DNA of 64,000 bases from Pseudonocardia broussonetiae (GTDB taxonomy: Bacteria; Actinomycetota; Actinomycetes; Mycobacteriales; Pseudonocardiaceae): the NCBI RefSeq assembly GCF_013155125.1, contig NZ_CP053564.1:4223501-4287500 (forward strand). Reading direction: 5' to 3'. The notes below the pieces were generated by a model. The model was not told the DNA's origin. It was given only the letters and a program-made list of their open reading frames with translations, and did no database searches. The position numbers and the translations under genes are program-made. Shown here piece by piece: positions 4,545 through 31,200 of the stretch. Each line of letters starts with the position of its first letter. Position 1 is the stretch's first letter.

Positions 4545-5423
4545 TCAGGCCGCGTCAGCGGCCGTGTAGTGAATGGTCTCGTACTCGATCGGGGTGAGTC
4601 TGCCGAGGCGGCGTTGACGGCGCCGACGGTGGTAGGTGCGCTCGATCCAGGTGATGATCGCCAGCCGCAACTCCTCCCGGCTGGACCAGCGTCGCCGGTC
4701 CAGGACGTTCTTCTGGAGCAATGCGAAGAATGACTCCATGGCCGCGTTGTCCCCGGCCGCACCGACCCGCCCCATCGACCCGATCAGCCTGTTGTCGCGC
4801 AGGGCATGGACGAAGGCGTGCGAGCGGAATTGACTGCCTCTGTCGGAGTGGACCACACATCCGGCCACGGTCGCGGCTCCGCCGCGGCGGGCGACGGCGC
4901 TGCTCAGGGCGGTGACCGCGAGCTGGGAGGTCATGTGGTCGTTCATCGAGTAGCCCACGATCCGCCCCGAGCAGCCGTCCTTGATCGCGCAGAGGTAGAG
5001 CTTGCCCTCGTCGGTGGGATGCTCGGAGATGTCGGTCAACCACAGCCGGTCAGGCCGGACTGCGGTGAACTCGCGACGCACGAGATCGTCGTGCACCGGC
5101 GGGCCCGGCCTGCGTCCCTTGCCACGTCTGCGGGCATGGACCGAGAACAGACCCGCCGCCGAGCACAGCCGCCAGACCCGGCGCTCGGACACGACGTGTC
5201 CGGCGGCGTCGAGCTCGTCGGCGATGAAGCGGTAGCCGAACTCGGGGTCGTCGCGGTGGATGTCGATCGCGGCGTTGGTCAGATAGGCGTTGGCCAGGTC
5301 GAGATCGCTGATCGGGTCGGTGAGCCAGGCGTAGTAGGCCTGGCGGGAGAACCCCAACACTCGACAGCTCACCGCGACCGGCACCCCTGTTCCGGCCAAC
5401 CGGCGGACCAGGGGAAACATCAT
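4545..5423 (-). CDS. IS3-family transposase OrfB (DDE catalytic protein)
   Basis: This is a 292-residue transposase of the usual OrfB size. An N-terminal HTH_21-like segment (FSRQAYYAWL, about residues 25-34) is followed by an rve-type integrase core. The catalytic residues can be read as Asp in WLTDIS, Asp in VVHSDRGSQF and Glu in MESFFALLQK, the IS3 D-D-(35)-E spacing. The end (RRLGRLTPIEYE) is typical for the family. The ATG at 5423 overlaps the OrfA stop (ATGA), and an AAAA run at the junction could also allow frameshifted OrfAB. All three catalytic residues are present, so it is probably active. Confidence 0.93.
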   Translation of the reverse strand: MMFPLVRRLAGTGVPVAVSCRVLGFSRQAYYAWLTDPISDLDLANAYLTNAAIDIHRDDPEFGYRFIADELDAAGHVVSERRVWRLCSAAGLFSVHARRRGKGRRPGPPVHDDLVRREFTAVRPDRLWLTDISEHPTDEGKLYLCAIKDGCSGRIVGYSMNDHMTSQLAVTALSSAVARRGGAATVAGCVVHSDRGSQFRSHAFVHALRDNRLIGSMGRVGAAGDNAAMESFFALLQKNVLDRRRWSSREELRLAIITWIERTYHRRRRQRRLGRLTPIEYETIHYTAADAA

Positions 5424-5719
5424 TTTGGGCCGGGCAGGACCGCCTGGGACAGATAGGCGGCGGCCTTGCGCAGGACTTCGTTCTCCTGTTCGAGCAGCCG
5501 GTTGCGCCGGCGCAATTCCCGCAGTTCCACGGACTCCGCGGCGGTCACGCCGGGCCGGTTGCCGTCCTCGACATCGGCGGTGCGCAGCCAGTTGCGCAGG
5601 CAGGACTCGCTGATCCCGAAGTCCTTCGCAATCTGCCCGACCGGGGCCTCGCCACGGCGGGCAACGGCCACGACGTCCTCGCGGAACTCCTTGGGATGGG
5701 GCCTAGGCACGTTCGACAT
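5420..5719 (-). CDS. IS3-family transposase OrfA (DNA-binding helix-turn-helix)
   Basis: Starting at the ATG at 5719 (MSNVPRPHPKEFREDVV), the protein has 99 residues: an HTH_8-type helix-turn-helix (VGQIAKDFGISESCLRNWL) followed by a leucine-zipper-like coiled coil (LRELRRRNRLLEQENEVLRKAAAYL) that in this family mediates multimerisation. It overlaps OrfB by 4 bases. A longer in-frame start at 5746 exists but adds residues not typical of the family. Confidence 0.88.
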   Translation of the reverse strand: MSNVPRPHPKEFREDVVAVARRGEAPVGQIAKDFGISESCLRNWLRTADVEDGNRPGVTAAESVELRELRRRNRLLEQENEVLRKAAAYLSQAVLPGPK

Positions 5720-5820
5720 CCTTCCAGCGAGGACAGCAGTCCTCACAGATCAGGTGTCAACCGAATCGTCAGCAGTCCCATGCGTGAATTAAAACGGGTC
5801 GGATTCTACTGCCTTAACAG

Positions 5821-6770: not shown

Positions 6771-7431
6771 AAAGGCCGAGTTCCTGCGGCTCGCCGCAGC
6801 GCGCGGGAACATCTCGGCCGCGGCCCGGGACGCCGGTATCCATCGGCCGACGGCCTACGCGTGGGCACGTAAGGCGGGGATCTTCACCAGCGAGGCCCGG
6901 AAGGTGAACCCGCGTCGTGAGGAGTTCCTGCGGCTGCGGGCCGAGGGGCAGACCCGTCGTGAAGCCGCCAGGACGGTCGGCGCGGACAACCGTTCCGCGA
7001 CCGACTGGGACAAGGGGATCACGATCATTCACCGCGGCCGGGTCTATCCCGATGGCCGGGTCGTGCGCTATCCCGAGCCGACAATCACCGGCGTGAAGCC
7101 CGCCCGCCCCGCCCGCCACATCGGTGGCACGGTCGACCTGAACCGTGTCGAGCACGTCATCCATCCTCGGTATCCGAGTCTGCTCGAGCGTGAACACCTC
7201 AAGGACCTGCAGGCGACCGATCTGTCGATCCGCAAGATTGCGGCTGCGATGCAGCGCTCGCCGTCGACGATCAGCCGTGAGTTGAAGCGCAACACCGTCT
7301 CGGCGGCCGGCTACCTGCCGCACACCGCTCATCGGTTGTCGGTGCAGCGTCGGATGCGGGAGCGCCAGCCGAAGCTGCGGGCGAACGAGGAGCTCCGCAC
7401 CTACGTGCAGGCCAAACTGAACGCTTCGTAG
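6771..7431 (+). pseudogene. IS30-type transposase, N-terminal fragment
   Basis: The plus-strand frame reads EFLRLAAARGNISAAARDAG, a helix-turn-helix, then RREEFLRLRAEGQTRREAARTVG, another HTH, then YPSLLEREHLKDLQATDLSIRKIAAAMQRSPSTISRELKRN, the hallmark helix-turn-helix of IS30-family transposases. It ends at a stop at 7431 before any DDE catalytic core, and no start codon lies at the 5' end, which abuts the zinc-ribbon gene. It is therefore a relic truncated at both ends. A GTG at 6904 could start a shorter frame, but that would still lack the catalytic domain. Confidence 0.75.
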
Positions 7432-7531: not shown

Positions 7532-8758
7532 TCACCTCTCGAGTATCTCAACGAACCACTGGCCGAATGCGGTATCCCTCTTCTCGCGGGACGTCCGATC
7601 GCCCAACTGCATGCCGCGAACACCTTTCGGTCGCAGCGCCAGTACCTCAGTGATCGCGCGGGGACCGACGCCCTTTGCATCGTACGCCGCGGGATCGTCG
7701 ACGAACGCCCTAGCTGCAGCGGCGAGTACCGAACGGACGTCGTGCAGACCGCTGGACAGACCAAGCCTCAGCCGCTCGGCTCCGCGGTCCGTGTTCGGCG
7801 AAGGCGACTTCACCACCTCCGGGAGAGCCCGCTTTCCGAGACCGTCGTACGGGCCGGCCAGCAGTGCGCTGACGACCGCAGCGGCCTCGTCGGCAGTGTC
7901 CCGGCCGTCCCACCGGGCGCGGCGGTCGACTGTCGCCCGGCAGAGCGCGGCGCGGACGACTGCGGGCGGGTAGCGCTCCTGGCCGGCCCCGCCCTCCGGG
8001 GCGGCGGCGAGCCCGTCGAGCATGACCGTCAGGTATGCCGGGCCGCAGGCCAGGCTAGCCACGACGTCGGCGAAGGCCTCACCCAGCCACACCTTCCACT
8101 GCGCCTTGCGCGACTCGGGGACGGCGGAGGCGACGAGGCGGGCGGTCAGTTCCGGCGTCAGGCCGCAGTCGTCCTCGATGTGGTGCCCCACCTCGTGGGC
8201 GACCAGCAACGCACCGGGCAGGTGGCTGCTCAGGTACCACGGTAGGCCGATGACGGGAAAGGGCAGCGAGCGGGCGACATCGGCGCCGGTCCGTGTCCGC
8301 ACGTCTCGGGGCAGCAGGTCGCGATAGCTCTCGCCTCGCGGAGTCGCGAACGGCACCGCGCTGCGGTCGAGGAAGACCAGCGGTGGCTCGCGCAGCCTCA
8401 CCCCGAACAGGCCTGCCGCCTCGATGGCCGGTCGGTAGGTCGTCCAGGCGAGCTCGTCGGCCGCGTCGAGGAATCGCCGGACCGGCGCTACCGAGCGCAG
8501 CGCGAGCTTCGCCCGGTAGAAGTCCCACACGTGGTGCAGGTCGAGGATCGCCTCGGCTGGATCGCCGGGCCGTGTCGTGTCGAGGCCGTCCATCCCGGCC
8601 CCGAGCAACCGGACGACGCTGCCGATCTGGGTGTTGTGCTTCTCGAGGTCCTCGCCCGGTGCGGTCGCAGCCTGCCAGTAGGCCCACTCCGCGCGCAGGC
8701 TGTCCCGGGCATGCCCCAGCTCCGCACGCCGGCGCTGCGCGTACCCGGCGTGGGTCAT
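7532..8758 (-). CDS. Zinc metallopeptidase-like protein (HExxH), last gene of the CHAT/STAND operon
   Basis: This 408-residue protein has a gluzincin-type active site: HEVGH at residues 188-192 (within LLVAHEVGHHIEDDCG), with GEAFADVVA at 226-234 supplying a likely third zinc ligand, Glu227. The N-terminal 180 residues look helical. No signal peptide or membrane segment is seen, so it should act in the cytoplasm or as cargo. The ATG at 8758 overlaps the STAND gene stop by 4 bases. I do not recognise the family beyond the zincin motif. As the last gene of a protease/NTPase operon it is a candidate effector or processing enzyme. Confidence 0.72.
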   Translation of the reverse strand: MTHAGYAQRRRAELGHARDSLRAEWAYWQAATAPGEDLEKHNTQIGSVVRLLGAGMDGLDTTRPGDPAEAILDLHHVWDFYRAKLALRSVAPVRRFLDAADELAWTTYRPAIEAAGLFGVRLREPPLVFLDRSAVPFATPRGESYRDLLPRDVRTRTGADVARSLPFPVIGLPWYLSSHLPGALLVAHEVGHHIEDDCGLTPELTARLVASAVPESRKAQWKVWLGEAFADVVASLACGPAYLTVMLDGLAAAPEGGAGQERYPPAVVRAALCRATVDRRARWDGRDTADEAAAVVSALLAGPYDGLGKRALPEVVKSPSPNTDRGAERLRLGLSSGLHDVRSVLAAAARAFVDDPAAYDAKGVGPRAITEVLALRPKGVRGMQLGDRTSREKRDTAFGQWFVEILER

Positions 8759-11700
8759 CGGCCGGGCAGGGTGAAGGCGGATGGTGCCGCGAAGACGGCG
8801 ACGGCGCGGCCGGCGAGCTGGTCGGCGTCCGTAGCCCAGTCGCCACGGGCCAGCCGCCTGCGATCGTCGAACGTCTCGGGCGGTCGCATCGCGGTGGCGA
8901 TCCGGGCGAGCGGCCAGCCGTTGGCCGTCCCGGCGGCGATCGCGTCGATGTATGGTGCGCCGCTCATCTGAAGCCCGGTGGCGATGATCGCGGGGACGCC
9001 GTAAGCGAACAGGGTGGCGGCGAACTGGTTGCGCAGCACCAATTGCCACGGCACGTCGAACGGCGAACCCGGGCTGGGCGGATCGAGCACCACGAGCGGT
9101 ATCCGCCCGGGCATGCAGCCACGCAGCCAGCGCGCCACGTCCGCCGGCCGGATGTCGACGGGGCGGGCCTTGGAGCGCAGCCGCTCGGAGACGGCGGCCG
9201 AGGACATGTCGAAGTAGGGCCCGGCGCTGCGCATGTCGAGACGAGCGGTGATGTGCAACACGCTGGCCGTTTCGAGGATCGCCAGCCAGTCGGTGTCGGC
9301 ATCATCGACGCGGTCGATGACCCGGGCCCGGAAGCCGTGCCGGGCATAGAGGTGGGTGACATCGAATCCGGAGTCGGCGTGGGAGGCGACCATCGACTCG
9401 ACGAGAGCATTCGGCCGGACGACGACGACCATCGCAGGTCGTGACCGGGGCTCTCCGAGGACGTTCGCAAGAGTCTCGCGCACGCGCGGTGACAGTGGCG
9501 TGACGTCGGCATCGGGGGCGAGTTCCCTGAGGCCGCGGGCCGTCGCGGCCCCCAGAACGCCGTCGATCGGCAGAGCGACGCCGATCTCGTTCAACCCGCG
9601 CTGGATCCAGGCGACGTCGAGACGTTCGGCCGAGGCAGGGAGGCTCCGGAAGCTTGCCCGCCGCCACTGGTCGGAAAGCGGCGGTGCGACGATCTGCGGT
9701 GCCACAGCAAGCTCCCACGGCAAGCCCTGCAGGGCGACGTCGTCGGTCTCCAGCCGCAGCGCGTCGAGCCCGTTCCCCCTGGCGAGGTCCCGGTTCGCGC
9801 CGTCGAAGAGGACGTCCCCCAGGTCAGCCGCCAGCTGCGGCCACTCGTTGACCAGCATGTACTGCAGCATGACGAGATCCGACGGCGCCGCATCCGGTCG
9901 GCGGAGCACGACGCTGCGTTCACCCGCCCTGTCCGCGAGGACCCGGCCGGCCGCGGACCGGGGTCGTTCCGGACGCCGGATCCCGAGCCGCGCGTCCATG
10001 TCGTCGGCCAGGGCCAGGGTGGACGGATGCCCGGTCAACTCCGCCTCGGCCCGTAGAACATCGGCCGCGCACCGCGTGGGGCGGCCGACGGCGCGGCACG
10101 CGTCGCGGGCCGTCGCCAGCAGCTCCCGGGGACTTCCGACGGCGAAGAAGGTTGCCCTGGCGAGGGCCAGCAGGGTCTCGGCGCGCAGCAGTGGCGGTGC
10201 GAGGTCCGGGTCCAGGAGTGGGTCCAGTAGCTCGGCCGCGATCGTGCCGGGGAGGCGCACCCGTGCCCGCAACCACCGTCGCCGGGCGAGGAGCGCTTCC
10301 GGCCCCGCCGGGAGATCGGCCAGCGCATCGTCGAGCGCGCGGATCGCTCGCCGGTGGTTGCCCCCCAGACGATCCAGCTCGCTGAGCAGCTGGCGCTGGA
10401 CGGCGGCATCAGAATCGCCGACGCCGAGGTCCGGGGCGTAGATCGGGTCGTACAGCGTGCGCAGAGCGGTGACGTCGCCCGCCGGGATCACGTCGTCCCC
10501 GCGGCGAAGCTCGTCCAGCACGACGAGACGGGCTGATGGCGGCTGGAGGCGCGCCACCGCGTCGAGCAGGCCGGGAAGTAGACGCCGGTGCCGTGACCAG
10601 GATCGGGCCAGGCGTGCAGCCACGGCCTGAGCCCTGGCTCGCGGTGCCAGCAGCGGGCCCACCTCGGTCCCTGCCGAATCCTCTTCGGTCGACCCGCCCT
10701 GGGCCGCGAGTAGCTCGACGGTGAGATCGCTCCACAATGGTTCCAGCTCGCTGAGCCGGCTCGCGGGTGGCCGGGCGACGCGTGCGGCGGCCGTCACGTC
10801 ACCGACGGTGCGCACGAGAAACCGGTAGTACAGGAAGGCACATTCGGGGTGGCCCGCCGCGAAACCCAGCTCGCTCCAGAGCGACGACGCCGTCACGAAG
10901 CTCGCCTCGGCCTCCTCGACGTCCAGCAGTTCGGCGAGCACGACCCCGCGCAGCTGATGGGTCTCGGCCAGCTGCGTGGACCGGGCCGACGGGTCCGTGA
11001 GGTCGGCCGCGGCCGCGGCCGCGGCGGCGAGCTCGGCCAGGGCAGACCCCGAACGGCCCTGCTGCAGGTGTGCCCGCGCCCGCATCCGCGCAGCCGCCGC
11101 CAGGTCGGCCGGCCCAGCCCGATCCAGGTCGGCCAGCACGCCGATCGCGGCCGCGGGTCGGTAGCAGGCCAGCAGCAGCCGGGCGTGCATGAGTCGTGCC
11201 GCGGCCGATGTGGCCGGAGCGAGCCCGCACCACTGGGTCGCGAGGTCCAGGCGGCCGTTCGACTCCGACAGCCGCGCGAGGGAGAGCAGGATGGCGCTGC
11301 GCTGGTCAGCGCGCCCCTGTGCTCCGGCCTGGTCGAGTGCATCGCGATACGTGGCATCGGCGGCAGGTGAGCCGGCGGCGGCCTGGGCGTCACCCAGGGC
11401 TCGGAGCAGGTCGGGGCGCTCGGAGGCGGGAGCATGCGGCAGCGCGCCCTGCACGAGCTCGGCCGCCGCCGCGAGCTTCCCCTTCCTGATCAGCAGCGCC
11501 GCACCGACGACCACCGCCACCGCTGCGGCCACCGCCAACTCGGACGACACCGGGTCAGCAGTTCCTCGCAGCGCCGCCTCGCGGTGGGCGAGCGACTGGT
11601 CCGCCTCCGCCCAGAGCGGGTCGGAGGCTTCGGCCGACAGCTCGCGGGCGAGCTCGACCGCCGCGTAGCCCAGCCACCCGTGCGCCTCGGCGATCACCTC

Positions 11701-13773
11701 GGCCGGCACCACGGGCTGGTCGTCGATGTCGCGGTAGTCGTCGCTCAGCACGTCGCGCGCGACGGCCTGCATGCCGTCGAGGTCGCCGTCGTCGCGAAGC
11801 CGGCGGACAGCGGCGCGCCAGTGATCGGCAGCGTCGGGATCGGCCATCTGGAACCGGTGGTAGACCGCTTCGCGCAGATAGCCAGCCCGACCCGACGGCC
11901 CCATCCGGGCGAGCTCGTCGAAGCGCCGGCGAAACGCCTCGTGAAGCGCTAGGAACACGGGCCAGCCGGAGATCAGGCGGCGCATCGGGGCCCGCACGAT
12001 CTGGTGGAAGACCACCGTCCGGACGTCGCCCGGCGGCTGCGACACCCACGATGCTCGCGCGGAGTAGGCCAGCAGGCGGTCCCACGTCGCGGCCAGCGTC
12101 GGCCCGTCCGGCGCCTCGGTGAACGGGAAGACGTCGGCGTTGCCGGCTCGATGGTGCGCATCGGCGCGTGGATCGTCCTGGTCGCTCGGCCCGACGACAC
12201 CACGCTCCAGGAACGGCCCGAGCAGTGTGGTCACGTCGTCGAAGGTCAGCCGCCGGGGCACGACCCCGTAGCGCACCAGCCATTGCACCTGCGGGTCGCG
12301 GATGCGCCGGATGACGCGGTCGATGAGCAGCAGCAGGGCCGGCTCCCGGTACTGCTCGAGCACCGCCGACGTGATCTCGGGGTCGTCCTCGACGAGGTCG
12401 GCGAACAGCGCCACCAGCAAGGGATATCCGTCGGTCTTCCGGGCGACGACGGCGCGCAGCGCGGGGTCGGGGATGCCGCGGATGTCACGCAGGTAGATCG
12501 TGGCCTGATCGGGGGCGAATCCCGCCAGCTCGACCGGCTCCGCGGACCCGAACTCGGCCATCCTGCCCGGTACGCGCACGTGCAGGTCGTAGCGGCCGGC
12601 GAGCACAAGTCGAAGCGCGGGGCATTCCCGGACGAGATGCGCGAGCAGCCCCAGCAGTAGCCCCAGCGGGGCGGTGCCGGTGAGCAGGACCTCCTCCAGG
12701 GTGTCGACGACGAGCAGGACTGGACGGTCGCCTGCGGCGGCGTTGAAGCGCCGGACGAACACGTCGATGATCGCCCGCTCGACCTCGTCGACGTCGGTGA
12801 GTGCGACGCCCCGCGCGGCGCCGCGCGAGAGCGCGGAGGTCTGGCGGCCGGCCAGGCTCCGATAGGAGGCGAAGCGGTCGAGTTTCTCGAACACCCGGCG
12901 CGGCCACCGGCGATCGAGTTGTTCGGCCACCTCCAGCAGCATCAGCCACGGGTACCGCGCAACGTTGACCGGGTCGACCACGTCGAAGTCGATGCGGGCA
13001 CACGGGATGCCGAGCGGTACGCAGTGCCGCGCCACCAGCCACTGAAGCTGCATGGTCTTCCCATGGCCGCTCGGGGCGAACAGCTGCCAGACTCGGGGGC
13101 CCGACGCCGACAGCAGGCGATCGGTCCGCTCGCGCAGCCCCGGTGGCTGGAGGAACTGTGCCGACCGGCCGTAGTCGGTCGACCAGTAGAGCCGGGCGCG
13201 CAGGTGACCGGTCCGGTCGAGCCTCAGCTCCGACACCTCCGGTCCGGCGAACGTGACCCGGTGGGGGTCGGCGAGCAGGTCGAGCAGGTCCTGGTAGCGG
13301 GCGAAGTCTCGCGCCTCGTCCGCCTCGCGGAACAGGCCATCGAACAGCGGGATCGCCTCGGCCGGGTCGGCGAGGAGCAGGTGCCGGGCCCGCGCCGTCG
13401 GGTTGCCACGTTCGGCGTGCCAGGAAGCGAGTTCCGCCTCCAGTTCGACCAGGTCGGGTGGTGCTCCATCGCCGGACCACCCGGTCTGCCATTCGAGCAT
13501 CCAGCCTGCCGCGTCTGCACGGGGCACGCGCCATCCGCCATCGGCTCCGTCGATCGGCTCGACGAGGCCGCGTTCGGCCAGCTCGGCGAGCTCCGGTGCG
13601 TGCGTGCCGGCATGGCTCCCGAGTACCGCGGCGAACAGGTCGTAGCTGAAGGCGTCCGCGGCCGCGCAGGCCCGCAGCGCCCGCCTCCAGGACTCGGGCA
13701 GCAGGCCCCGGCGGATCTGGTCAAGGCTCTGGCCGGATGCCACCAGCCGGGCGAGCTCCTCGACGTTCGTCAT
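8755..13773 (-). CDS. STAND NTPase with helical repeats, PG-binding-like motif and degenerate CHAT-like C-terminus (1672 aa)
   Basis: The protein starts at the ATG at 13773, overlapping the CHAT gene stop by 4 bases. After a helical N-terminus comes a P-loop NTPase: Walker A APSGHGKT at 233-240 and Walker B-like VLLVVDTLEE roughly 95 residues later, as in STAND ATPases. Residues of about 620-1300 are Ala/Leu/Arg-rich helical repeats of TPR type. Near 1388-1420 a segment (IQRGLNEIGVALPIDGVLG) resembles PG_binding_1. The last ~300 residues follow CHAT order (LQGLPWELA, then VLHITARLD, then LVVLDPPS), but the catalytic His and Cys positions are not H and C. A sensor or signalling NTPase is inferred; the trigger is unknown. 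Confidence 0.78.
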   Translation of the reverse strand: MTNVEELARLVASGQSLDQIRRGLLPESWRRALRACAAADAFSYDLFAAVLGSHAGTHAPELAELAERGLVEPIDGADGGWRVPRADAAGWMLEWQTGWSGDGAPPDLVELEAELASWHAERGNPTARARHLLLADPAEAIPLFDGLFREADEARDFARYQDLLDLLADPHRVTFAGPEVSELRLDRTGHLRARLYWSTDYGRSAQFLQPPGLRERTDRLLSASGPRVWQLFAPSGHGKTMQLQWLVARHCVPLGIPCARIDFDVVDPVNVARYPWLMLLEVAEQLDRRWPRRVFEKLDRFASYRSLAGRQTSALSRGAARGVALTDVDEVERAIIDVFVRRFNAAAGDRPVLLVVDTLEEVLLTGTAPLGLLLGLLAHLVRECPALRLVLAGRYDLHVRVPGRMAEFGSAEPVELAGFAPDQATIYLRDIRGIPDPALRAVVARKTDGYPLLVALFADLVEDDPEITSAVLEQYREPALLLLIDRVIRRIRDPQVQWLVRYGVVPRRLTFDDVTTLLGPFLERGVVGPSDQDDPRADAHHRAGNADVFPFTEAPDGPTLAATWDRLLAYSARASWVSQPPGDVRTVVFHQIVRAPMRRLISGWPVFLALHEAFRRRFDELARMGPSGRAGYLREAVYHRFQMADPDAADHWRAAVRRLRDDGDLDGMQAVARDVLSDDYRDIDDQPVVPAEVIAEAHGWLGYAAVELARELSAEASDPLWAEADQSLAHREAALRGTADPVSSELAVAAAVAVVVGAALLIRKGKLAAAAELVQGALPHAPASERPDLLRALGDAQAAAGSPAADATYRDALDQAGAQGRADQRSAILLSLARLSESNGRLDLATQWCGLAPATSAAARLMHARLLLACYRPAAAIGVLADLDRAGPADLAAAARMRARAHLQQGRSGSALAELAAAAAAAADLTDPSARSTQLAETHQLRGVVLAELLDVEEAEASFVTASSLWSELGFAAGHPECAFLYYRFLVRTVGDVTAAARVARPPASRLSELEPLWSDLTVELLAAQGGSTEEDSAGTEVGPLLAPRARAQAVAARLARSWSRHRRLLPGLLDAVARLQPPSARLVVLDELRRGDDVIPAGDVTALRTLYDPIYAPDLGVGDSDAAVQRQLLSELDRLGGNHRRAIRALDDALADLPAGPEALLARRRWLRARVRLPGTIAAELLDPLLDPDLAPPLLRAETLLALARATFFAVGSPRELLATARDACRAVGRPTRCAADVLRAEAELTGHPSTLALADDMDARLGIRRPERPRSAAGRVLADRAGERSVVLRRPDAAPSDLVMLQYMLVNEWPQLAADLGDVLFDGANRDLARGNGLDALRLETDDVALQGLPWELAVAPQIVAPPLSDQWRRASFRSLPASAERLDVAWIQRGLNEIGVALPIDGVLGAATARGLRELAPDADVTPLSPRVRETLANVLGEPRSRPAMVVVVRPNALVESMVASHADSGFDVTHLYARHGFRARVIDRVDDADTDWLAILETASVLHITARLDMRSAGPYFDMSSAAVSERLRSKARPVDIRPADVARWLRGCMPGRIPLVVLDPPSPGSPFDVPWQLVLRNQFAATLFAYGVPAIIATGLQMSGAPYIDAIAAGTANGWPLARIATAMRPPETFDDRRRLARGDWATDADQLAGRAVAVFAAPSAFTLPGR

Positions 13774-15857
13774 GGTCCAACCGACTTCATCGCAAAGAGC
13801 TTGGCGGTTTCGTCGAGCCAGGTCACGGGCACACCGCCGGGGAATCTCTCCGCCCCCAGCTTGAAGATCATTTGGTTGCTCTCGAAGTCGAGTCCGCGCC
13901 GGCCACAGAAGTCCCGAGCGAGTCGTGCGAACTCGCCCGGTGCGAAGCCCCCGAGCGAGACCGACCCCCACAATCGCTCGTCCGATGGCGGCAACCGTCG
14001 GCCTGCCCAGGTGCTGGGGCCGACGAGAACGAGCCGGATGGGTGCGTGCCGGCCGTCCGCAACCGGCTTGACCAGCAGCGGGTAGACGAACTCGTCGAAC
14101 TCGTCGTCCAGGATCTTGTCGGCATGGTCGAGCGCGATCACATGAGGCCGCCCGTCGGATGCGACGGACAGGTCGGTCAGGAACTCGGAGAAGATCTGCC
14201 TCCTTCGGTCGTCCGCGCGGCCGACATCGTCGTCGAACGGCAGCCACCTGTCCTGCACGGGTAACTCGGCCGGTGCAGGTTCGGAGCGTCGGCTTCCGAC
14301 CGTGAGGTCGTTGAGGGCGGCGTTGAACCTGGAGTAGGCGTTCGCCGGTAATGGCTCGGGTTGTCGTGGGTCCAGGCTCGCGTCCCGGATCACCCTGATG
14401 ACGTCCAGCCAGCCTTTCCGTTCCACTGTCCGTGGCCGGTCCCGCCCGGGTTCGTCGTACCTCAGCGGTGTCCCGAGATCGACGTAGGTCGCCCGGTACC
14501 CGCGCACGAAGTAGGTGAACAGACACCAGCGGGTCAACCAGGTCGAGCCGGTCGACGCCGATCCGGCAACCGTATGGCCCTCGATGACCAACAGCGACCG
14601 GGCGGGATCGTGCTGGGGCGGGGGGTCCAGCGCCCACCAGGCCTTCCGGCGCTCGCACGCCCGTCCGAGGAAGTACCGCAACCGGCGGTACTCGGTGCTG
14701 TCGGACAGCCGGGAGATGGACGAGGGGTCCGGCACGAACCGGATGCGCAACACGTCCGTGGGGTCGGTGCGCGTTGCGAGCACCGGCAGGGCCCACTCTC
14801 CGTTGTCGCCGCCCGCGGCCCTCCTCAGCCGTCGGCGCGCCTCGGCAACGATGTGATCCAGCGGTGCCATGTCGGCGAGACCCTCGTACAGGGCGGCCGA
14901 GAACAGGGTGGCGGCCTTCGACTCCACGTCGGCCTGCATCGACACCACGGCGCGCGCGTCCGTGTCGAGGAACGCCTCGGCGATGCCGCCGATCTGGTCG
15001 AGCGCTGCGGTCGCCGTGCGGCACGCGTTGATGACGACCAGCCGGGGGACCCAGTTCGTGAACAGGAACTCGATGTCGCTGCCGGCGAGCTCCCACGGCG
15101 TCGCCCGATGCGGATCCTCTGCGACACCATCGGGAACCCAGTTGAAGGCCAGCTCGGCGGCGCTGCCCGGCGCCCGGGGCATTCCGTGCCCGATGAAGTG
15201 CAGGACGTGCGGACGCAATCGGTGCACGGCCTCGGCGAGCATCGGGGCGCCCGCTGGGCCGTCGAGGGTCTCGACGTGCATCCGGCCGAGTTGACCGGCC
15301 AGCGCTCCTGCCACGCGGGTGAGCTCGTCGTCGCCCATGAGACCGAGGTCCAGCGGGTTGCACATCACGATCAGCACCCGCAGCGGCCCGTCGTCATCAC
15401 CGCAGGGCAGCACGGGGTCGGCGCCCCGCCACAGCACCACGTTCTGACGCAGCGCGAGCCACGTGCTGCCGCTGCGGAGAAGCTCCCACGGGAGCGCCCT
15501 CAGGCGCTGCGGGCCGACGTCAAGGCGCAGCCGAAGCCGCCTTCCGGCGATGTGGGACGCCGCCACCTCCTGCCACAGGTCCGCGACGGCGCCGCGGACG
15601 ACCCCGTCGAACAGGCGGCTCCCGGCGCTCTCCCGCTCGTCGCCCCGCGACGTCCGGGAGAGCACCGCGACGAATTCGTCGCTCGATGTGCTGCCGTCGG
15701 CGAGGCCGGTCAGATCCGGCCCCAGCGGGGCCGACGCCGAGCGGTCGGCCGACCCGCACGTTCCGCGAACGGTGAGCGAGACGGTGCAGCCCGCCGGATC
15801 TCCGGCCACCGCGAGCACCGCGTCGACCGGGTGACCAACCGCATCACCGCTGGTCAT
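13770..15857 (-). CDS. CHAT-domain caspase-like protease with degenerate P-loop module (695 aa)
   Basis: Residues of about 85-380 form a CHAT domain (clan CD, related to caspases and separase). RALPWELL is near residue 120, His224 lies in LHFIGHG and Cys279 in VVINACRTA, so the dyad looks intact. The C-terminal half begins with a P-loop-like segment at 427-440 (GHTVAGSASTGSTW) without the Walker lysine and has a later Walker B-like strand (HVIALDHADKI), suggesting a NTPase fold that may not hydrolyse nucleotide. It is coupled by 4-base overlaps to the genes on either side. CHAT proteases often cleave a genetically linked partner; substrate and trigger here are unknown. Confidence 0.88.
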   Translation of the reverse strand: MTSGDAVGHPVDAVLAVAGDPAGCTVSLTVRGTCGSADRSASAPLGPDLTGLADGSTSSDEFVAVLSRTSRGDERESAGSRLFDGVVRGAVADLWQEVAASHIAGRRLRLRLDVGPQRLRALPWELLRSGSTWLALRQNVVLWRGADPVLPCGDDDGPLRVLIVMCNPLDLGLMGDDELTRVAGALAGQLGRMHVETLDGPAGAPMLAEAVHRLRPHVLHFIGHGMPRAPGSAAELAFNWVPDGVAEDPHRATPWELAGSDIEFLFTNWVPRLVVINACRTATAALDQIGGIAEAFLDTDARAVVSMQADVESKAATLFSAALYEGLADMAPLDHIVAEARRRLRRAAGGDNGEWALPVLATRTDPTDVLRIRFVPDPSSISRLSDSTEYRRLRYFLGRACERRKAWWALDPPPQHDPARSLLVIEGHTVAGSASTGSTWLTRWCLFTYFVRGYRATYVDLGTPLRYDEPGRDRPRTVERKGWLDVIRVIRDASLDPRQPEPLPANAYSRFNAALNDLTVGSRRSEPAPAELPVQDRWLPFDDDVGRADDRRRQIFSEFLTDLSVASDGRPHVIALDHADKILDDEFDEFVYPLLVKPVADGRHAPIRLVLVGPSTWAGRRLPPSDERLWGSVSLGGFAPGEFARLARDFCGRRGLDFESNQMIFKLGAERFPGGVPVTWLDETAKLFAMKSVGP

Positions 15858-16696
15858 GCGCCCTTCCGCGGGGTGGGCTCGTCATTGAAGGGCAGCTGCG
15901 CGTCGGCCTGCACCTGCTCCAGGACGCTACCCGGGTCGTCGTGCGCCTCTTCCACGACGATTGCCGGGACGGGTACCGGAGACGCACCGCGGCCGGGCTG
16001 CTTCGCGCCGTAGCGGACCTCGATCCGGTTCATCCAGTTTCGGCTGAGGCGGACGACCCGGTGGAAGGGGGTGACCGCGGAGCCGGTCCATTGGAGTCCG
16101 ACGGACTTCGACGTCGCGACCGTCACCCCGCCCGCGAGGTCCGCGAGCGCGAGCGGGCCGGCGCCGACCGAGGCGGCAGCGCGCAGCTCGGCCGAGGCCC
16201 CGCCCTTGCTCGCGGCCAGTACGGTCGCGGAGGCAGCGGACACGACGTCGGTCACGGCGGCCAGCCGGTCGTCCCACGAGCCCGCCCAGTAGCGCCGCAC
16301 GATGTCGGCAGCGACCGACCGCGTGTCGGCCATCCCCGTCTGTGTGACCTCGCTGAACACCACGAACACCGACGAGGCGCGGTCGAAGGAGATCATTGCG
16401 CCGGCGTCTGCCTGGGCGAGTCCGGCGAAACCGGCCGGGCTCTGGCCGGCCACCTTGAAGCGCACCGTGACCGAACCGTCCGAGTCGTAGATGAAGGTGC
16501 CCGGCGGGGTCTGCGGTCCACACTCGAACCCGACTCCCCGCCCGGTGAGGTCACCTGCGGTCCGCACGGTGCCGGCCGCGTCGTCCACGTCGAGCACGTC
16601 GCCCACCCGCACCTCTCGAGACAGCGGCCAGACGAGCCACCAGCCCTTCCACGGGTCCCGCATCGCCGTGACGTAGCTGTCGTACGATCCGACCAT
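15854..16696 (-). CDS. Uncharacterised 280-aa protein, first gene of the CHAT operon
   Basis: The ATG at 16696 (MVGSYDSYVTAMRDPWKGWW) follows a GAGGGG ribosome-binding site; the in-frame ATG 18 bases upstream lacks one. Residues 1 to about 125 look beta-rich (SREVRVGDVLDVDD, then VTVRFKVAGQSPAGF). About 140-215 is an Ala/Gly-rich segment that could be amphipathic helices. More strands follow, and the acidic Pro-rich tail looks disordered. It resembles a scattered, unnamed bacterial family I cannot identify. As the first gene, coupled by 4 bases to a protease with an intact dyad, it is the obvious candidate substrate. A membrane-active role is speculation from the Ala/Gly segment only. Confidence 0.7.
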   Translation of the reverse strand: MVGSYDSYVTAMRDPWKGWWLVWPLSREVRVGDVLDVDDAAGTVRTAGDLTGRGVGFECGPQTPPGTFIYDSDGSVTVRFKVAGQSPAGFAGLAQADAGAMISFDRASSVFVVFSEVTQTGMADTRSVAADIVRRYWAGSWDDRLAAVTDVVSAASATVLAASKGGASAELRAAASVGAGPLALADLAGGVTVATSKSVGLQWTGSAVTPFHRVVRLSRNWMNRIEVRYGAKQPGRGASPVPVPAIVVEEAHDDPGSVLEQVQADAQLPFNDEPTPRKGA

Positions 16697-18310: not shown

Positions 18311-20389
18311 GTGAGCGATGAGCGGCCGCTCGTCACCTGCCTGCTCCCCGGCCACGGTGACCGACGTCTCGTCGCTCAGGCCATCTACTACTTCCTGCGG
18401 CAGGACCACCCGACCAGCGAGCTGATCGTGCTTGTCACGCCCGGATCCGCGGATGGTGTCGAGCCGCGCGGCGGGAACGTCCGGGTGGTGGTCGTCGACC
18501 CCGCTGAGCTGGACGACGCCGGGACGGTGTGGGCCCGCGGGCGTGCGGAAGCCCGCGGTGAGCTGCTGGCGTGGTGGAGTCCGACCGACTGGATCGGACC
18601 CGACCGGATCTCCGCCCAGGTCCGCGACCTCGGGGACGCCGGCGCCGTCGCGGCTCGATCGGTGCTCACCTACCGGCTCCGCCACGGCGACGCCGTGCAG
18701 GGAGAGGGGACGGTGCCCGCCTCGGCGATGGTGCGCCGCGATGCGTCGCTCGAGCATCTGGTCGTGGTCGAGGATCCGGGCTGGTACCTGTGCATGGAGA
18801 CGCGGCGCAGCCCGGCCGGGCGGTCCGCACGCCCGCTCCACAACGCCGTGGAGCGCATCGGTGACGACGGCCCGTTCTACGCGGCGCTGCGTGCCGGCTC
18901 CGGCCCCGGCACCGCCCGTCCGCAGGCGCGTCGTCGCCGGGCAGGGCTGACCCTCGCCGTGCCGCTGATGGTGTTCGACGGGCTCGGGAGCATGGGGGAG
19001 TACCTCGCGCTCGCGCTCGCCGAGGCGGGCATCGCGGTCAACCTCGTGCCGTGGCGGCTGCACCGCGAGGGGCTGCGTCCCGACTTGCTCGCCCTGCTGG
19101 AACGCTCCCGGCCCGACCCGGCCGACCCCGTGCTCGTGCTGAGCTGGATCGGCCACGCGCTCGAGGGCTGGGGTCGCGCGCCCGTCACGTTCGTCAACGC
19201 GATGTGGGAGAGCACGGTGGTGCCCGCGGCGTTCGTCGAGCGACTCAACACCGCGACCGCCGTGATCTGCCCGTCGGGCTGGGTGGCCGACACGTTCCGC
19301 GACAGCGGCGTCCGCGTCCCGATCGCCGTCGTGCCCCAGGGGGTGGACCCGCAGCGCTACCCCTTCTCCGGGCCGCGCCGCGGGCGCGGGTTGACGACCC
19401 TGATCGTGGCGGCGTGGGCAGCGCGCAAGAACCTCCGCGAGTCGGTCGACGCGTGGCAGCTCGCGTTCGACGGTGACCCGGACGCCCGCTTGATGATCAA
19501 AACTCGGTTCGGCGGCGGCAACCGGGCCCAGCTGCCCGACGACGAGCGGATCACCGTGGTCGACGACAACGAGGCGTCGCCCGGTATCGCGCACCGCTAC
19601 CGGCAGGCCGACGTGCTGCTGGCGCTCGGCGGTGAGGGGTTCGGCCTGCCGCTGCTGGAGGGGATGGCGTGCGGGCTGCCGGTCGTCGCGCTCGACGCTC
19701 AGGGCCAGGCCGACACGTGCACGCTCGCGGGTGACGCCGTGCTGCGGGTGCCCGCGGCCGACTGGGTGCCCTACGACGACGGGCAGTACCGCAGCGGGCT
19801 TCGCGCCGTGCCGGACGTGCCCTCCGTGGCGGCGGCGCTGCGCTGGGTCGCCGACCATCGCGACGAGGCCGCCGCGATGGGACAGCGTGCGTCGGAGTGG
19901 GTGCGTCGCGAGCGCGACGTCTGGTCGATGGGCCCCGCGATGGTGCGCGTGCTCGCCGAGCACCTGGGTGGCACCGACGGCCTGAGCCTCGCCGAGGCGA
20001 TCGTCCATCCCGAGTCCGACGGGCGGGCCCGTGCCTACGCGCTGGCGCTGCGGCGGGCGGTGCCGCGTGCGGCGATCCGCTCCGGGCTCGGCGACGCCAG
20101 CGGTTTCCGGCTCGTCGACGTCCAGTACGACGCCGACGGCTTCGACGACGCCGCGCTCGACCGGTTCGTCCGCGGCGCCCGGCTGCGCGGAACAGCCGTG
20201 CTGGTCACCGCCCACCGGCTCCCGCCGCAGCCGACGGCCTGGGAGTGTGCGGTCGACCTGCTGGCCGGCGCCGACGACGAGGTGGTGGCCGCGTTGCGCC
20301 ACCGCTGGCCCGCCCGGCGGGTCGAGCGGCTGACGGGGGAGCCCGCCACCGCGCACACCGAACTGTGGGACTCGATCGCGACGGCCTGA
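18311..20389 (+). CDS. Two-domain glycosyltransferase (GT2-like N-terminus, GT4 C-terminus)
   Basis: Translation starts at the GTG at 18311 (MSDERPLVTCLLPGHGDRRL). Residues 1 to about 190 resemble a GT2 nucleotide-sugar fold but without a clear DxD, so this half may be non-catalytic. From about 215 a GT-B fold follows: GVDPQRYPF, a nucleotide-binding half beginning TTLIVAAWAARKNL, and the GT4 retaining-enzyme signature GEGFGLPLLEGMACG near 439-453 with its donor-binding glutamates. The stop is only 17 bases before the sheath gene, so it is transcribed into the injection-system operon. The linkage suggests it decorates a CIS component or cargo, which is inference. Confidence 0.8.
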   Translation: MSDERPLVTCLLPGHGDRRLVAQAIYYFLRQDHPTSELIVLVTPGSADGVEPRGGNVRVVVVDPAELDDAGTVWARGRAEARGELLAWWSPTDWIGPDRISAQVRDLGDAGAVAARSVLTYRLRHGDAVQGEGTVPASAMVRRDASLEHLVVVEDPGWYLCMETRRSPAGRSARPLHNAVERIGDDGPFYAALRAGSGPGTARPQARRRRAGLTLAVPLMVFDGLGSMGEYLALALAEAGIAVNLVPWRLHREGLRPDLLALLERSRPDPADPVLVLSWIGHALEGWGRAPVTFVNAMWESTVVPAAFVERLNTATAVICPSGWVADTFRDSGVRVPIAVVPQGVDPQRYPFSGPRRGRGLTTLIVAAWAARKNLRESVDAWQLAFDGDPDARLMIKTRFGGGNRAQLPDDERITVVDDNEASPGIAHRYRQADVLLALGGEGFGLPLLEGMACGLPVVALDAQGQADTCTLAGDAVLRVPAADWVPYDDGQYRSGLRAVPDVPSVAAALRWVADHRDEAAAMGQRASEWVRRERDVWSMGPAMVRVLAEHLGGTDGLSLAEAIVHPESDGRARAYALALRRAVPRAAIRSGLGDASGFRLVDVQYDADGFDDAALDRFVRGARLRGTAVLVTAHRLPPQPTAWECAVDLLAGADDEVVAALRHRWPARRVERLTGEPATAHTELWDSIATA

Positions 20390-27136: not shown

Positions 27137-27348
27137 GCGCGCCGGGACGCGTCGTCGTCCGCCGCCTGGTGCTGGAAGGCGTGGCCGGCCGTGACCGCGA
27201 GCGGGTGGCGACGGCGTTCCAGGCCGAGCTGGCGCGGCTGCTGGCGGGAACCCCGGCCGACCGGCTGCCCACGGCCGGCTCGGCAGAGGACCTCGGTCGG
27301 CAGGCGGCCGTCGCGGTGCACGCCCGGATCGTCGAGGCGGCGCCGTGA
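27133..27348 (+). CDS. Small eCIS-locus protein (71 aa)
   Basis: A GTG overlapping the ATPase stop by 4 bases starts a 71-residue helical protein (MSAPGRVVVRRLVLEGVAGR, then ATAFQAELARLLAGTPADRL). Small proteins of this size and character recur between the ATPase and DUF4157 genes in eCIS clusters; I know no function. Its stop overlaps the next start (GTGA). Tight coupling on both sides supports it as a real gene. Confidence 0.65.
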
Positions 27349-28253
27349 CCCGTCCCGAGCCCCTGATCCGCCCGTCGCGGTCCGCGGTGCAGCGCTGCGC
27401 CGACCGGATCTCGTGCGCCTGCGCCGACCACGACGGACACGAGGTACCTGCACAGGTGCAGGACGCGCTGCGCGAACCGGGCTCACCGCTGCCTGCCGGG
27501 CTGCAGGTGGACCTCTCGGCGCGGCTGGGGCACGACTTCGGCAAGGTCCGCGTCCACGACGGCGAGCGGTCCACCGCGACCGCCCGCGAGCTGGGAGCGA
27601 AGGCGTTCACCCGGGGCGGGGACGTCGTGCTCGACCGTCGGCGGCTTCCCGCCGGGCGCGAGCGGGAGACGGTGCTCGTGCACGAGCTCGTCCACGCGGC
27701 ACAGCAGGAGGGGGAGCGCGGCGATCGGGTCGATCCCGCCCGTACGCCGGCCGAGGACCAGGCGGGCCGCATCGCCGACGACGTGATCGCGCGCCGGCCC
27801 GCGCCACACGGGCCCGTCGCGGACCGGGGCGAGCCCCCGCCGCCGCGTCCGGTGCCGCCGATCGCGGCGACCTGGGGCCTCGACCTGACCCCCCGCCGGG
27901 ACGGGGGCTTGGAGATCGCGGCCACCGGTCCGGGGCTCCCGACGCGGGCAGCGGGGGCGGTGACGGTCGAGCGCAGACCGGAGGGGTTCGTCCTGCGGGT
28001 GCCCGCACGCGCGCCGGTCGCGCTGCGACACCTGCCGAAGGCGCTGGCACGGATGCTCGCGGCGGCCGCAGCCGGGGGCGATCGCACCGCCGAGCTCGAG
28101 CCGCTCGCCGCCACGGAACTGCTGGCCGAGAGCGACCAACTGGCGATGGCGCTCACCCCCGCGGCACCGCTGGACCGGAGCGAGCTCCCGAGCACACCCT
28201 CCGGCGCAGCGCCGCCCGCGCGGCCGACGAGCCTCGGAAGGGATGAGCTGTGA
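27345..28253 (+). CDS. eCIS-core (DUF4157) protein, short form
   Basis: Residues of about 45-125 form the DUF4157 domain: LPAGLQVDLSARLGHDFGKV, RVHDGERSTATARELGAKAF, then the zincin-like HELVH at 113-117 followed by AAQQ. This domain marks eCIS-associated proteins and is often fused to toxins, possibly as a protease or loading signal. The N-terminus has a Cys cluster (CADRISCACADH). The C-terminal ~160 residues are a less conserved beta-containing region without a known toxin motif. It overlaps both neighbours by 4 bases. Confidence 0.85.
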   Translation: MTRPEPLIRPSRSAVQRCADRISCACADHDGHEVPAQVQDALREPGSPLPAGLQVDLSARLGHDFGKVRVHDGERSTATARELGAKAFTRGGDVVLDRRRLPAGRERETVLVHELVHAAQQEGERGDRVDPARTPAEDQAGRIADDVIARRPAPHGPVADRGEPPPPRPVPPIAATWGLDLTPRRDGGLEIAATGPGLPTRAAGAVTVERRPEGFVLRVPARAPVALRHLPKALARMLAAAAAGGDRTAELEPLAATELLAESDQLAMALTPAAPLDRSELPSTPSGAAPPARPTSLGRDEL

Positions 28254-31200
28254 GCGCCCCGACGGCGGAACGGCAGGCCCCGGCGCCTGTGCGGCGGCGG
28301 CCGGGCCGGGGCGCGGCGCGTCAGGCCGCGGTGGAGTTGCTCGACTCGCCGGGGCAATCGCTCGACCCCTGCGTACGCGCCGACGTCGAGCAGCTGCTGC
28401 CCGGCGCCGGTGTCGATCGTCTGGGCCTCGTCCGCATCCACACCGACGACACCGCCGCGGACGCGGCCGAGGCCGTCGGCGCCGCCGCGTTCGTGCTCGG
28501 CCGGCACGTCTACTTCGCGCGCGGCCGCTACAGCCCCGCGACCCCCGCGGGGCAACGGCTGCTGCTGCACGAGCTGACCCACGTACTGCAGCAGGAGACG
28601 GGCGACCGCGCCGACCCGGCCGTCGCGGTGTGCCGGGAGACCGAGGCCGACCTGCTCGCGTCGCCCGTCGGGGAGGGCCGGGCAGCGGTGCCGCGGCAGG
28701 AGCCGGTGACGTTGCCTGCCCTGCACTTCCGCGACGCCGTGCCCGTTCCGGTGCGGGCGTCGGTCCCGGTGGTCGACCTGCTGATGCGGCTCGTCGCGCG
28801 GACGCTGCGCACCGATCCCGACGACCGCGCCGGCCGCGTCGAGGCCCAGCTCGCCCGGCTCGACACGGGCCTGCGCACGGCGATCGCCGACCGGGCGGCG
28901 TCGGTGCTGAGCCCGCTGGAGTCCGGTCGGCTCGAGGCCGTACTGGAGCGCCTACACCCCGCAGGCGCGACGCTGTCCACCCCCGCGGCGCCGTCCACCG
29001 GTTCGACCGGTGACGAGGCCGCGCCCGCTGAGCCCGCCGCAGGCGAGCTCGCGGACGGCGACGCAGCCGACCCGAGAACCCCCGACGCCGACACTGCGAC
29101 GCCAGACCCGACCACGGCGGCGCCTGACACCACCCCGACCGTTGCGCGTGCCGCCCCAACGGCGGTCGAGGCGCCGGATCGATCAACGGCGCAGCGTGGG
29201 CCTGCGGACGACCGGACCGCAGCGAGCGGTGCTGCGCCCGGCACGGGCGGAGCAGGACCGGCGACGCAGGCGCCCGCCGGGGCCGCCACGGGCGACCCGG
29301 CAACCGCGGTCGTGAGCCCCGACGGCGGACGCCCGGCACCGGTTCCGCCGATCGCGGGCGGGCCACCACCGATCCCCGAGCCGCCGGCGGTGGCACCCGA
29401 CCAGGGACCGGAGGCGCCGCGGATCACGGATCCGGATGCTGCGCGGGCCGCCGTCGCCGCGGGCGGGCCACCGCCGCCAGCCCAGGCCGCTGCGCCCACG
29501 CCCGACGAGGGCGAGCGGCGCGCCGAGGCCGACGACTCGACTGTGCTCGACGCGGCGACCTCGGGTGGCCCGGAGGCAGCACCGGCAGGTGCCGATGCGG
29601 GTCCGGGCGAGAGCGCCGCCGATCAGGGTGATGCCGGAGGAGGCGCCGGACCTGGGACGGCCGCCGCTGAATCCGCAGCGACGGCATCGGCTCCAGCCGG
29701 GCCGGAGGCAGCACCGGCAGGCGGAAGCGTCGACAACGGTGCCGGCTCGGGCGGCGCGGGCAGGCCCGCCTCGGAAGCTGCCGCCGCCTCGCCCCAGGCG
29801 GCAGCGGCCTTGCCCCAGCCAGCCGCGGCGGAGCCGGGCGCTCAGCCGGAGCCGGAGGCGGCGGAAACGGCCGGACCGGAATCGGTCGAACCAGGTGCCG
29901 GCGGGGCACCCCCGTCCGACGCGACCGCGGATGCCGTCACCGCGCCCGAGCCGACCCACGCCGACCCGGCACCGGACCGCGCCGCAGCGGACGAGACTGC
30001 CGAGATCGAGGCCGAGCCGGGCGAGGCCGATGCGGACCAGTCCGGCGTCGAGGAGACCGGTGCGGACGGGTCCGTCGCCGAACCCGCAGCCGAACCCGGG
30101 CAGGCCGGCTGCGGACCGGGCGCCGCCGCGTCGGCGCCCCCCGCCCCGGAACCGGACGAGGCCGCAGCCGGCTGTGCCACCTCCGGCGGCGCCCCACCGG
30201 AAAAGGCGCCTGCCCCGCCGCCCGAGCCGGACCTGGCCTCGATGCCGCCCGACCAGGCGATGGCGACCGTCGCCGCGGCCCGGCCGACCGCTCTGGCCGC
30301 CGCGTTGCCGCGGGTCGGGGCCGCGGCGTCGAGCACCGTCGACACCCAGCGCGCCGCGAACGCCGCCGCGCCGCCCGAGCTGCAGCGTCCGTCGGGCGCC
30401 GCGGCCGGGCTCGACGTGAAGGCCCCGCCACCGGCCGTTCCCGACTCGGCACCGGCGGCCCCCGGGAAGGTCGACCGCGTCGCCTCGAACGCCGGCCCGC
30501 CACCGGCGCCCCCGGTCCCGGCCCCTGTGCCCGACCCCGCGGCCAGGTCGGCGACGGCGGGGGTGCCGCAGCCTCGCCTGCCCGGCGACGCGAAGCTCTC
30601 GGAGGCCGACCTGGCGAAGGTCAGCGACACCGTGGCGGCGATGCCGGTCCGCGATCCCGAGCTGGACGTCACGGTCGACACGGCGACGACCGTCGAGCTC
30701 ACCGGGCAGGCCGACCCCGCCCAGGTGGCAGGGCAGAAGGCGGCGCTGGACAAGCAGGCCACCCGGGCCGCCGCGCAGGGAGCGAAGGACGCCGCCGGGC
30801 CGCTGGGCGAGGCCGACATCCGCCCGCACGTCCCCGAGCAGACGCTGCGGGCCGCGCCGCCCGCCGAGGGCGCCACCTGCCCCGGCATGCCGAAACGGGG
30901 AGCTCCCGCCGGGGGAGCCGAGGGCCGCTCCGATACGGCCGTCGACGCGATCGCCGCCGAGCAGAGCGGTGAGCGGATCCGCGCGGCCACCGGCAAGGCG
31001 GGCTCCGACTTCGCCGCCTGCCGCACCGAGCACGACGAGCGGGCCGCCACGGAGCGGACCGACGCGCGCGCGGGGATCGACCAGCAGGTGCTCGCCAGCG
31101 GCACCGAGCAGGTCGGCCTGCGCGCCGACGCGGTCACCGACTCGATCGCCCTGCGCAACGACTGGACCGCCGAACAGCGCACCGCCGTCACCACCGCCGA

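What the first reader, a model, noticed from the sequence alone, without database searches (positions are those of the whole stretch)
7532..16696. Four-gene operon: unknown protein, CHAT protease, STAND/pseudo-CHAT protein and HExxH metallopeptidase (possible undescribed conflict or cell-death system)
The four genes are joined by three successive ATGA overlaps, so they should be made in fixed stoichiometry. CHAT proteases and STAND NTPases are recurrent parts of bacterial regulated-cell-death and defence systems, but this set with a metallopeptidase last and a 280-aa uncharacterised protein first matches none I can name. It resides on the same island as a contractile injection system, where a cell-fate switch would make sense.
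Basis: partly seen in the sequence, partly recalled or inferred. Interest (0 to 1): 0.85.

Follow-up and report, generated by a model that had tools for sequence, protein, structure and literature searches.

The report
Hidden gasdermin-like cell-death operon in Actinobacteria
Four tightly joined bacterial genes appear to encode a disguised relative of gasdermin, the pore protein by which infected animal cells kill themselves, together with two proteases and a sensor-like ATPase that may switch it on.

Summary
In detail: four minus-strand genes (7532-16696) joined by three ATGA overlaps. The same order recurs in 14 of 22 named loci holding gene 1. Gene 1 (P1), unknown to Pfam, NCBIfam and PADLOC, folds confidently (pLDDT 88); the nine PDB matches at E<=1e-3 are all gasdermins, so it is most likely a divergent gasdermin-like pore protein. 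Gene 2 is a CHAT protease with an NTPase domain, gene 3 a STAND-type NTPase, gene 4 an HExxH metallopeptidase. Modules are exchanged: in seven Streptomyces loci P1 and the metallopeptidase lack CHAT/STAND and sit beside an FtsH (fvm) ternary conflict system; in seven loci of a family other than the window's, a two-helix membrane protein fills the P1 slot. Best model: STAND senses, CHAT relays, metallopeptidase (or CHAT) cleaves P1, pores kill the cell. Anatomy and co-conservation are shown; every biochemical step is inferred. The contractile-injection link is not conserved. Gasdermin-protease operons are known; this lineage and layout appeared in no paper I searched. New variant of a known kind.

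The parts
15854..16696 (-). P1, 280 aa: divergent gasdermin-like protein, presumed pore-forming effector; conserved N-terminal GWW..WP motif and conserved C-terminal tail (about residues 244-262)
13770..15857 (-). P2, 695 aa: CHAT (caspase-like) protease domain followed by a P-loop NTPase-like domain
   Evidence: Pfam PF12770 E 2.7e-16; His224/Cys279 in 14 of 14; C-terminal part against P3 NTPase region hhalign probability 92%, E 5.5e-7
8755..13773 (-). P3, 1672 aa: large STAND/NACHT-type NTPase with helical, repeat-like middle part and a C-terminal region of uncertain (possibly pseudo-CHAT) nature; presumed sensor
   Evidence: Walker A G236/G238/K239/T240 and Walker B D357 in 14 of 14; NACHT only sub-threshold, E 0.092
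7532..8758 (-). P4, 408 aa: HExxH...E zinc metallopeptidase, presumed to process P1

Best explanation
A regulated cell-death operon (probably abortive anti-phage defence) built round a divergent gasdermin-like pore protein. P3, an NLR-like STAND NTPase, is the likely sensor and assembly platform; it activates P2, a CHAT caspase-like protease with its own NTPase domain; a protease then acts on P1, the HExxH metallopeptidase P4 being the likeliest direct cleaver because it is the one protease of the operon that stays beside P1 where CHAT/STAND are absent. Cleavage of the conserved C-terminal tail would free P1 to form membrane pores and kill the cell. Shown here: gene set, co-conservation, intact active-site motifs, predicted gasdermin-like fold of P1, exchange of the slot-1 gene and of the control module. 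Inferred: sensing, order of proteolysis, cleavage of P1, pore formation, killing, phage as trigger.
Confidence: 0.62

Rival explanations
1. P1 is a gasdermin-like pore protein, but the CHAT protease P2 is its direct activator (the arrangement known for other bacterial gasdermins) and P4 has another job, such as destroying phage or host proteins or tuning P2/P3.
For: Caspase-like proteases cleave bacterial gasdermins in print (PMC9612521, passages). P4 occurs with CHAT and STAND genes but without P1 in the seven f31 loci, and with CHAT genes in four more distant loci.
Against: In 7 two-gene loci P1 keeps P4 but no P2 relative is found within the fetched flanks; an fvm-encoded protease could however act there.
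Confidence: 0.2
2. P1 has a gasdermin-like or other beta-rich fold but does not kill; the operon is a non-lethal regulatory or stress-response unit in which the proteases process a scaffold.
For: No functional data; low TM-scores; no N-terminal cysteine; the two-helix replacement protein is unclassified.
Against: Both slot-1 alternatives are membrane-type proteins; the companions CHAT and STAND and the fvm neighbours are typical of conflict systems (PMC7159879, passages); sparse, patchy distribution.
Confidence: 0.12
3. P4 is chiefly a peptide-processing protease, as in the FtsH ternary systems of Kaur et al., releasing a small signal or toxin peptide; P1 is a membrane partner rather than its substrate.
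For: In 7 of 7 two-gene loci a radical-SAM gene and an fvmRadSAM-pep gene follow P4; Kaur et al. describe a zincin-like metallopeptidase with radical SAM beside FtsH ternary systems (PMC7159879, passages).
Against: Those radical-SAM and peptide genes have no match in the 14 four-gene loci, where P4 is retained.
Confidence: 0.04
4. The operon belongs to the contractile injection system of the window (cargo release or cell-fate switch of that machine).
For: It lies about 3.7 kb from a sheath/Pvc16/AAA/eCIS_core cluster.
Against: None of 12 proteins from that side of the window matches within the flanks of the 22 related loci; the operon is on the opposite strand, with a divergent methyltransferase and glycosyltransferases between.
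Confidence: 0.02

Closest known systems
Bacterial gasdermin (bGSDM)-protease operons, e.g. Runella, Lysobacter (Johnson et al. 2022; paper not held; seen through passages of the reviews PMC9612521 and PMC10989679)
   Same: Short gasdermin-fold protein of similar length next to protease genes; some such operons hold CHAT/caspase-like, NLR/NACHT or Peptidase U49 genes (PMC9612521 figure 2 legend).
   Different: P1 is not found by sequence profiles and has no N-terminal cysteine; here a CHAT protease, a STAND NTPase and an HExxH metallopeptidase come together in one conserved actinobacterial unit, with natural swaps of effector and of controller.
CARD-NLR gasdermin systems of Lysobacter (Wein et al. 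2025; paper not held; described in passages of PMC13236601)
   Same: NLR-like protein, protease, gasdermin effector that can be replaced by other death effectors.
   Different: Trypsin-like peptidase there, CHAT and metallopeptidase here; whether P2/P3 hold a CARD was not tested by structure.
FtsH (fvm) MoxR-vWA ternary conflict systems with metallopeptidase/radical-SAM peptide-processing genes (Kaur et al. 2020, PMC7159879, passages)
   Same: The two-gene P1-P4 version lies beside such genes (radical SAM, PF20007, fvmX7/X3/X2); P4 may be the zincin-like metallopeptidase mentioned there (not verified).
   Different: The window's four-gene version has CHAT/STAND instead; the words gasdermin and CHAT do not occur in that paper's main text.
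Fungal gasdermin HET-Q1 with subtilase or CHAT proteases (PMC10989679, passages)
   Same: Gasdermin of about 280 aa paired with an adjacent protease gene, sometimes CHAT.
   Different: Fungal allorecognition; no adjacent STAND gene plus metallopeptidase as here.

Membership tests
Gasdermin fold | N-terminal pore-domain fold | tested here: met
Gasdermin fold | Recognisable sequence homology to known gasdermins | tested here: inconclusive
   No match in Pfam, NCBIfam, PADLOC or by profile in PDB; a profile of characterised bacterial gasdermins was not at hand.
bGSDM as characterised (palmitoylated type) | N-terminal cysteine for palmitoylation (majority of bGSDMs, PMC9612521) | tested here: not met
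   First cysteine of P1 is residue 59; no conserved N-terminal cysteine column in A1. So I do not file it under this type, only as gasdermin-like.
bGSDM as characterised | Adjacent protease gene | tested here: met
   P4 in 21 of 22 loci; P2 (CHAT) in 14 of 22, plus a piece in L024
bGSDM as characterised | Release of a C-terminal autoinhibitory peptide and pore formation | not testable with these tools
   Only a conserved C-terminal tail is seen
CHAT protease (PF12770) | CHAT profile match and His/Cys dyad | tested here: met
   E 2.7e-16, above the gathering score; H224 and C279 in 14 of 14
STAND/NACHT NTPase (P3) | Walker A/B motifs and STAND profile match | tested here: inconclusive
   Motifs invariant in 14 of 14, but Pfam NACHT E 0.092, below the gathering score
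HExxH zincin metallopeptidase, gluzincin-like (P4) | HExxH plus third Glu ligand and zincin fold | tested here: inconclusive
CARD-NLR gasdermin system | CARD domain and trypsin-like peptidase | tested here: inconclusive
   No trypsin match in the four proteins at E<=1; a CARD was not sought by structure
FtsH (fvm) ternary system | fvm family genes in the neighbourhood | tested here: not met
   None among 26 different window proteins scanned with Pfam, nor in the flanks of the 14 four-gene loci; present in 7 of 7 two-gene loci

The most novel reading that the evidence does not exclude
A sequence-invisible actinobacterial gasdermin lineage fired by a two-protease relay (STAND -> CHAT -> metallopeptidase -> gasdermin), organised as interchangeable cassettes: the pore effector can be swapped for a two-helix membrane protein, and the CHAT/STAND control unit for an FtsH/MoxR/vWA ternary system, with the metallopeptidase as the common adaptor.
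Probability: 0.45. Interest if true: 0.85.

Novelty: new variant of a known kind. Interest (0 to 1): 0.73.

Why it matters
If true, gasdermin-type death extends to a lineage that the sequence libraries tried here do not see, in multicellular Actinobacteria such as Streptomyces, and offers a bacterial system with a caspase-like and a metallo-protease in one death pathway. The natural module swaps would make it directly testable which component senses, which cuts and which kills, and would connect two classes of predicted conflict systems (gasdermin operons and FtsH/MoxR/vWA ternary systems).

Tried and rejected
Link to the contractile injection system: rejected as not conserved. Family naming of P1: nothing usable in Pfam, NCBIfam or PADLOC; the MS_channel hit (E 0.15) is taken as chance. 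P1 profile against PDB sequences: two matches with E above 1, taken as chance. P4 as Peptidase U49: not shown, no such Pfam match at E<=1 in 22 members; PADLOC 'peptidase_U41' matches 5 of 22 members, but no held paper uses that name. P4 fold by Foldseek: no significant match. P3 end as pseudo-CHAT: hhalign probability only 7%, kept as a possibility. Two-helix protein as SLATT: E 0.037 for one of the three tested, not claimed. Johnson 2022 and Wein 2025 could not be read. Paper searches were read as listings, apart from the papers cited; most listed papers are unrelated.

Counts that need care: L070 and L071 (genomes G557, G662) have the contig lengths of the records behind L019 and L007, and G324/G075 those of L022/L024, so they are not independent; the new four-gene loci are L072 and L073 only. 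Of the P4 matches, G433, G478 and G684 (all weak) were not fetched. L011 was left out of A3 and A4 as a near-copy of L006; P0001 (own) and P0028 (partial) were left out of A1; one search's tree holds 14 of the 21 loci of A2 plus the window. P1 was not searched for over the whole genomes, only in the fetched stretches.

Full report
OBSERVATION. P2 carries a Pfam CHAT domain (E 2.7e-16); P3 has only sub-threshold NACHT, AAA and peptidoglycan-binding matches; P4 has a sub-threshold Zn_peptidase match and a PADLOC peptidase_U41 match at 1.8e-6; P1 matches nothing meaningful.

CO-CONSERVATION. A protein search found 27 relatives of P1 besides the window's own entry and, with their alignment A1, 63; those shown with an organism are Streptomyces, Kitasatospora, Actinoplanes and Virgisporangium. 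A scan of one-genome-per-species contigs with A1 gave 22 named loci. Of these, 14 carry P1-P2-P3-P4 in this order and strand, 7 carry P1-P4 only, and 1 (L024, Frankia sp. CIT1) shows only pieces of P1 and P2 near a contig end. The system is rare: P1 was absent from 59 of 59 other genomes near the window's, 35 of them of its genus; in 296 genomes of the class (the window's own included) P1 matched in 3 and P4 in 9, of which 3 strongly.

MODULE SWAP 1: THE CONTROLLER. In all 7 two-gene Streptomyces loci P4 is followed by a radical-SAM gene and a relative of the PF20007 fvmRadSAM-pep gene, facing relatives of WD40, fvmX7, TPR, fvmX3 and fvmX2 genes; none of the 14 four-gene loci nor L024 has any of these in the fetched flanks (Pfam on L018; tblastn on all 22 loci). 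The two-gene type is one clade in the P1 and the P4 tree (support 100/99 and 100/100). These fvm families belong to the FtsH ternary conflict systems; Kaur et al. 2020 (PMC7159879, passages) describe a zincin-like metallopeptidase and radical SAM beside such systems. Whether that metallopeptidase is P4 I could not check.

MODULE SWAP 2: THE EFFECTOR. In family f31 (unnamed; not the window's family), 14 of 200 genomes match P4, 7 strongly; all 7 have P2, P3 and P4 but no P1 match in the fetched stretch, and just upstream of P2, on the same strand, a 132-161 aa protein (first start codon taken) with two hydrophobic segments of membrane-helix type. They form one clade in the P4 tree (96/98). So the first gene is exchangeable between a gasdermin-like protein and a small membrane protein, which is what one expects of an effector that attacks the membrane. 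More distant P4 relatives precede CHAT genes in L041, L076, L077 and L079, which suggests that the pairing of metallopeptidase and CHAT is older than its tie to P1.

MECHANISM. Best model: P3 senses and oligomerises, P2 is activated, P4 (or P2) trims P1's conserved C-terminal tail, P1 forms pores, and the cell dies before a phage is released. P4 is favoured as the cutter because it is the only protease gene of the operon that remains with P1 in the two-gene loci. No step after gene anatomy has been shown. The rival with P2 as cutter is the main alternative.

NOVELTY. Gasdermin-protease-NLR operons are known, including ones with CHAT and with Peptidase U49 genes (PMC9612521, figure 2 legend and text passages; PMC10989679, passages). 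No paper naming this gene set appeared in my searches of the held library (listings, apart from the papers cited); the two primary gasdermin papers are not held, so their supplements may already hold relatives. I rate it a new variant of a known kind: a cryptic gasdermin-like lineage with a CHAT-STAND-metallopeptidase controller and natural module swaps.

Noticed in passing
13770-15857 (-), residue 438 of P2: The window's P2 has Ser where the P-loop Lys stands in the 13 other aligned copies; its NTPase domain may have lost nucleotide binding in this strain.
   Followed up: partly
4545-5746 (-) and 6904-7431 (+): An IS3-type transposase pair (integrase core in Pfam) and a fragment that looks like an IS30-type transposase (my reading) lie next to the operon, fitting recent acquisition; 35 of 35 other genomes of the genus lack P1.
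   Followed up: no
L037:2335-2733; L064-L069 just before P2: Family of 132-161 aa two-helix membrane proteins with a conserved C-terminal end (LAxxAxRLFP) in the gasdermin slot; no Pfam family above its cut-off in the three tested.
   Followed up: partly
L041, L076, L077, L079: More distant metallopeptidase genes followed by a CHAT gene and then a further very long frame (cut by the stretch or contig end in some); a possible wider metallopeptidase-CHAT-STAND family without the P1 slot.
   Followed up: partly
L038, L039, L074: Still more distant P4 relatives sit beside Glu-rich acidic proteins, a different and unexplained context.
   Followed up: no
L024/L045 (Frankia sp. CIT1): Only pieces of P1 and P2 remain near a contig end; it looks like a broken copy.
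   Followed up: no
18311-20389 (+): Glycosyltransferase beside the contractile-injection cluster with a sub-threshold match to PF20706 GT4-conflict (E 2.8e-4).
   Followed up: no
27345-28253 and 28250-33511 (+): Two successive eCIS_core genes; the second open frame is 1753 aa from its first start codon.
   Followed up: no
P0065: A 422-aa protein matches P1 over only 46% of the query; possible fusion or odd gene model.
   Followed up: no
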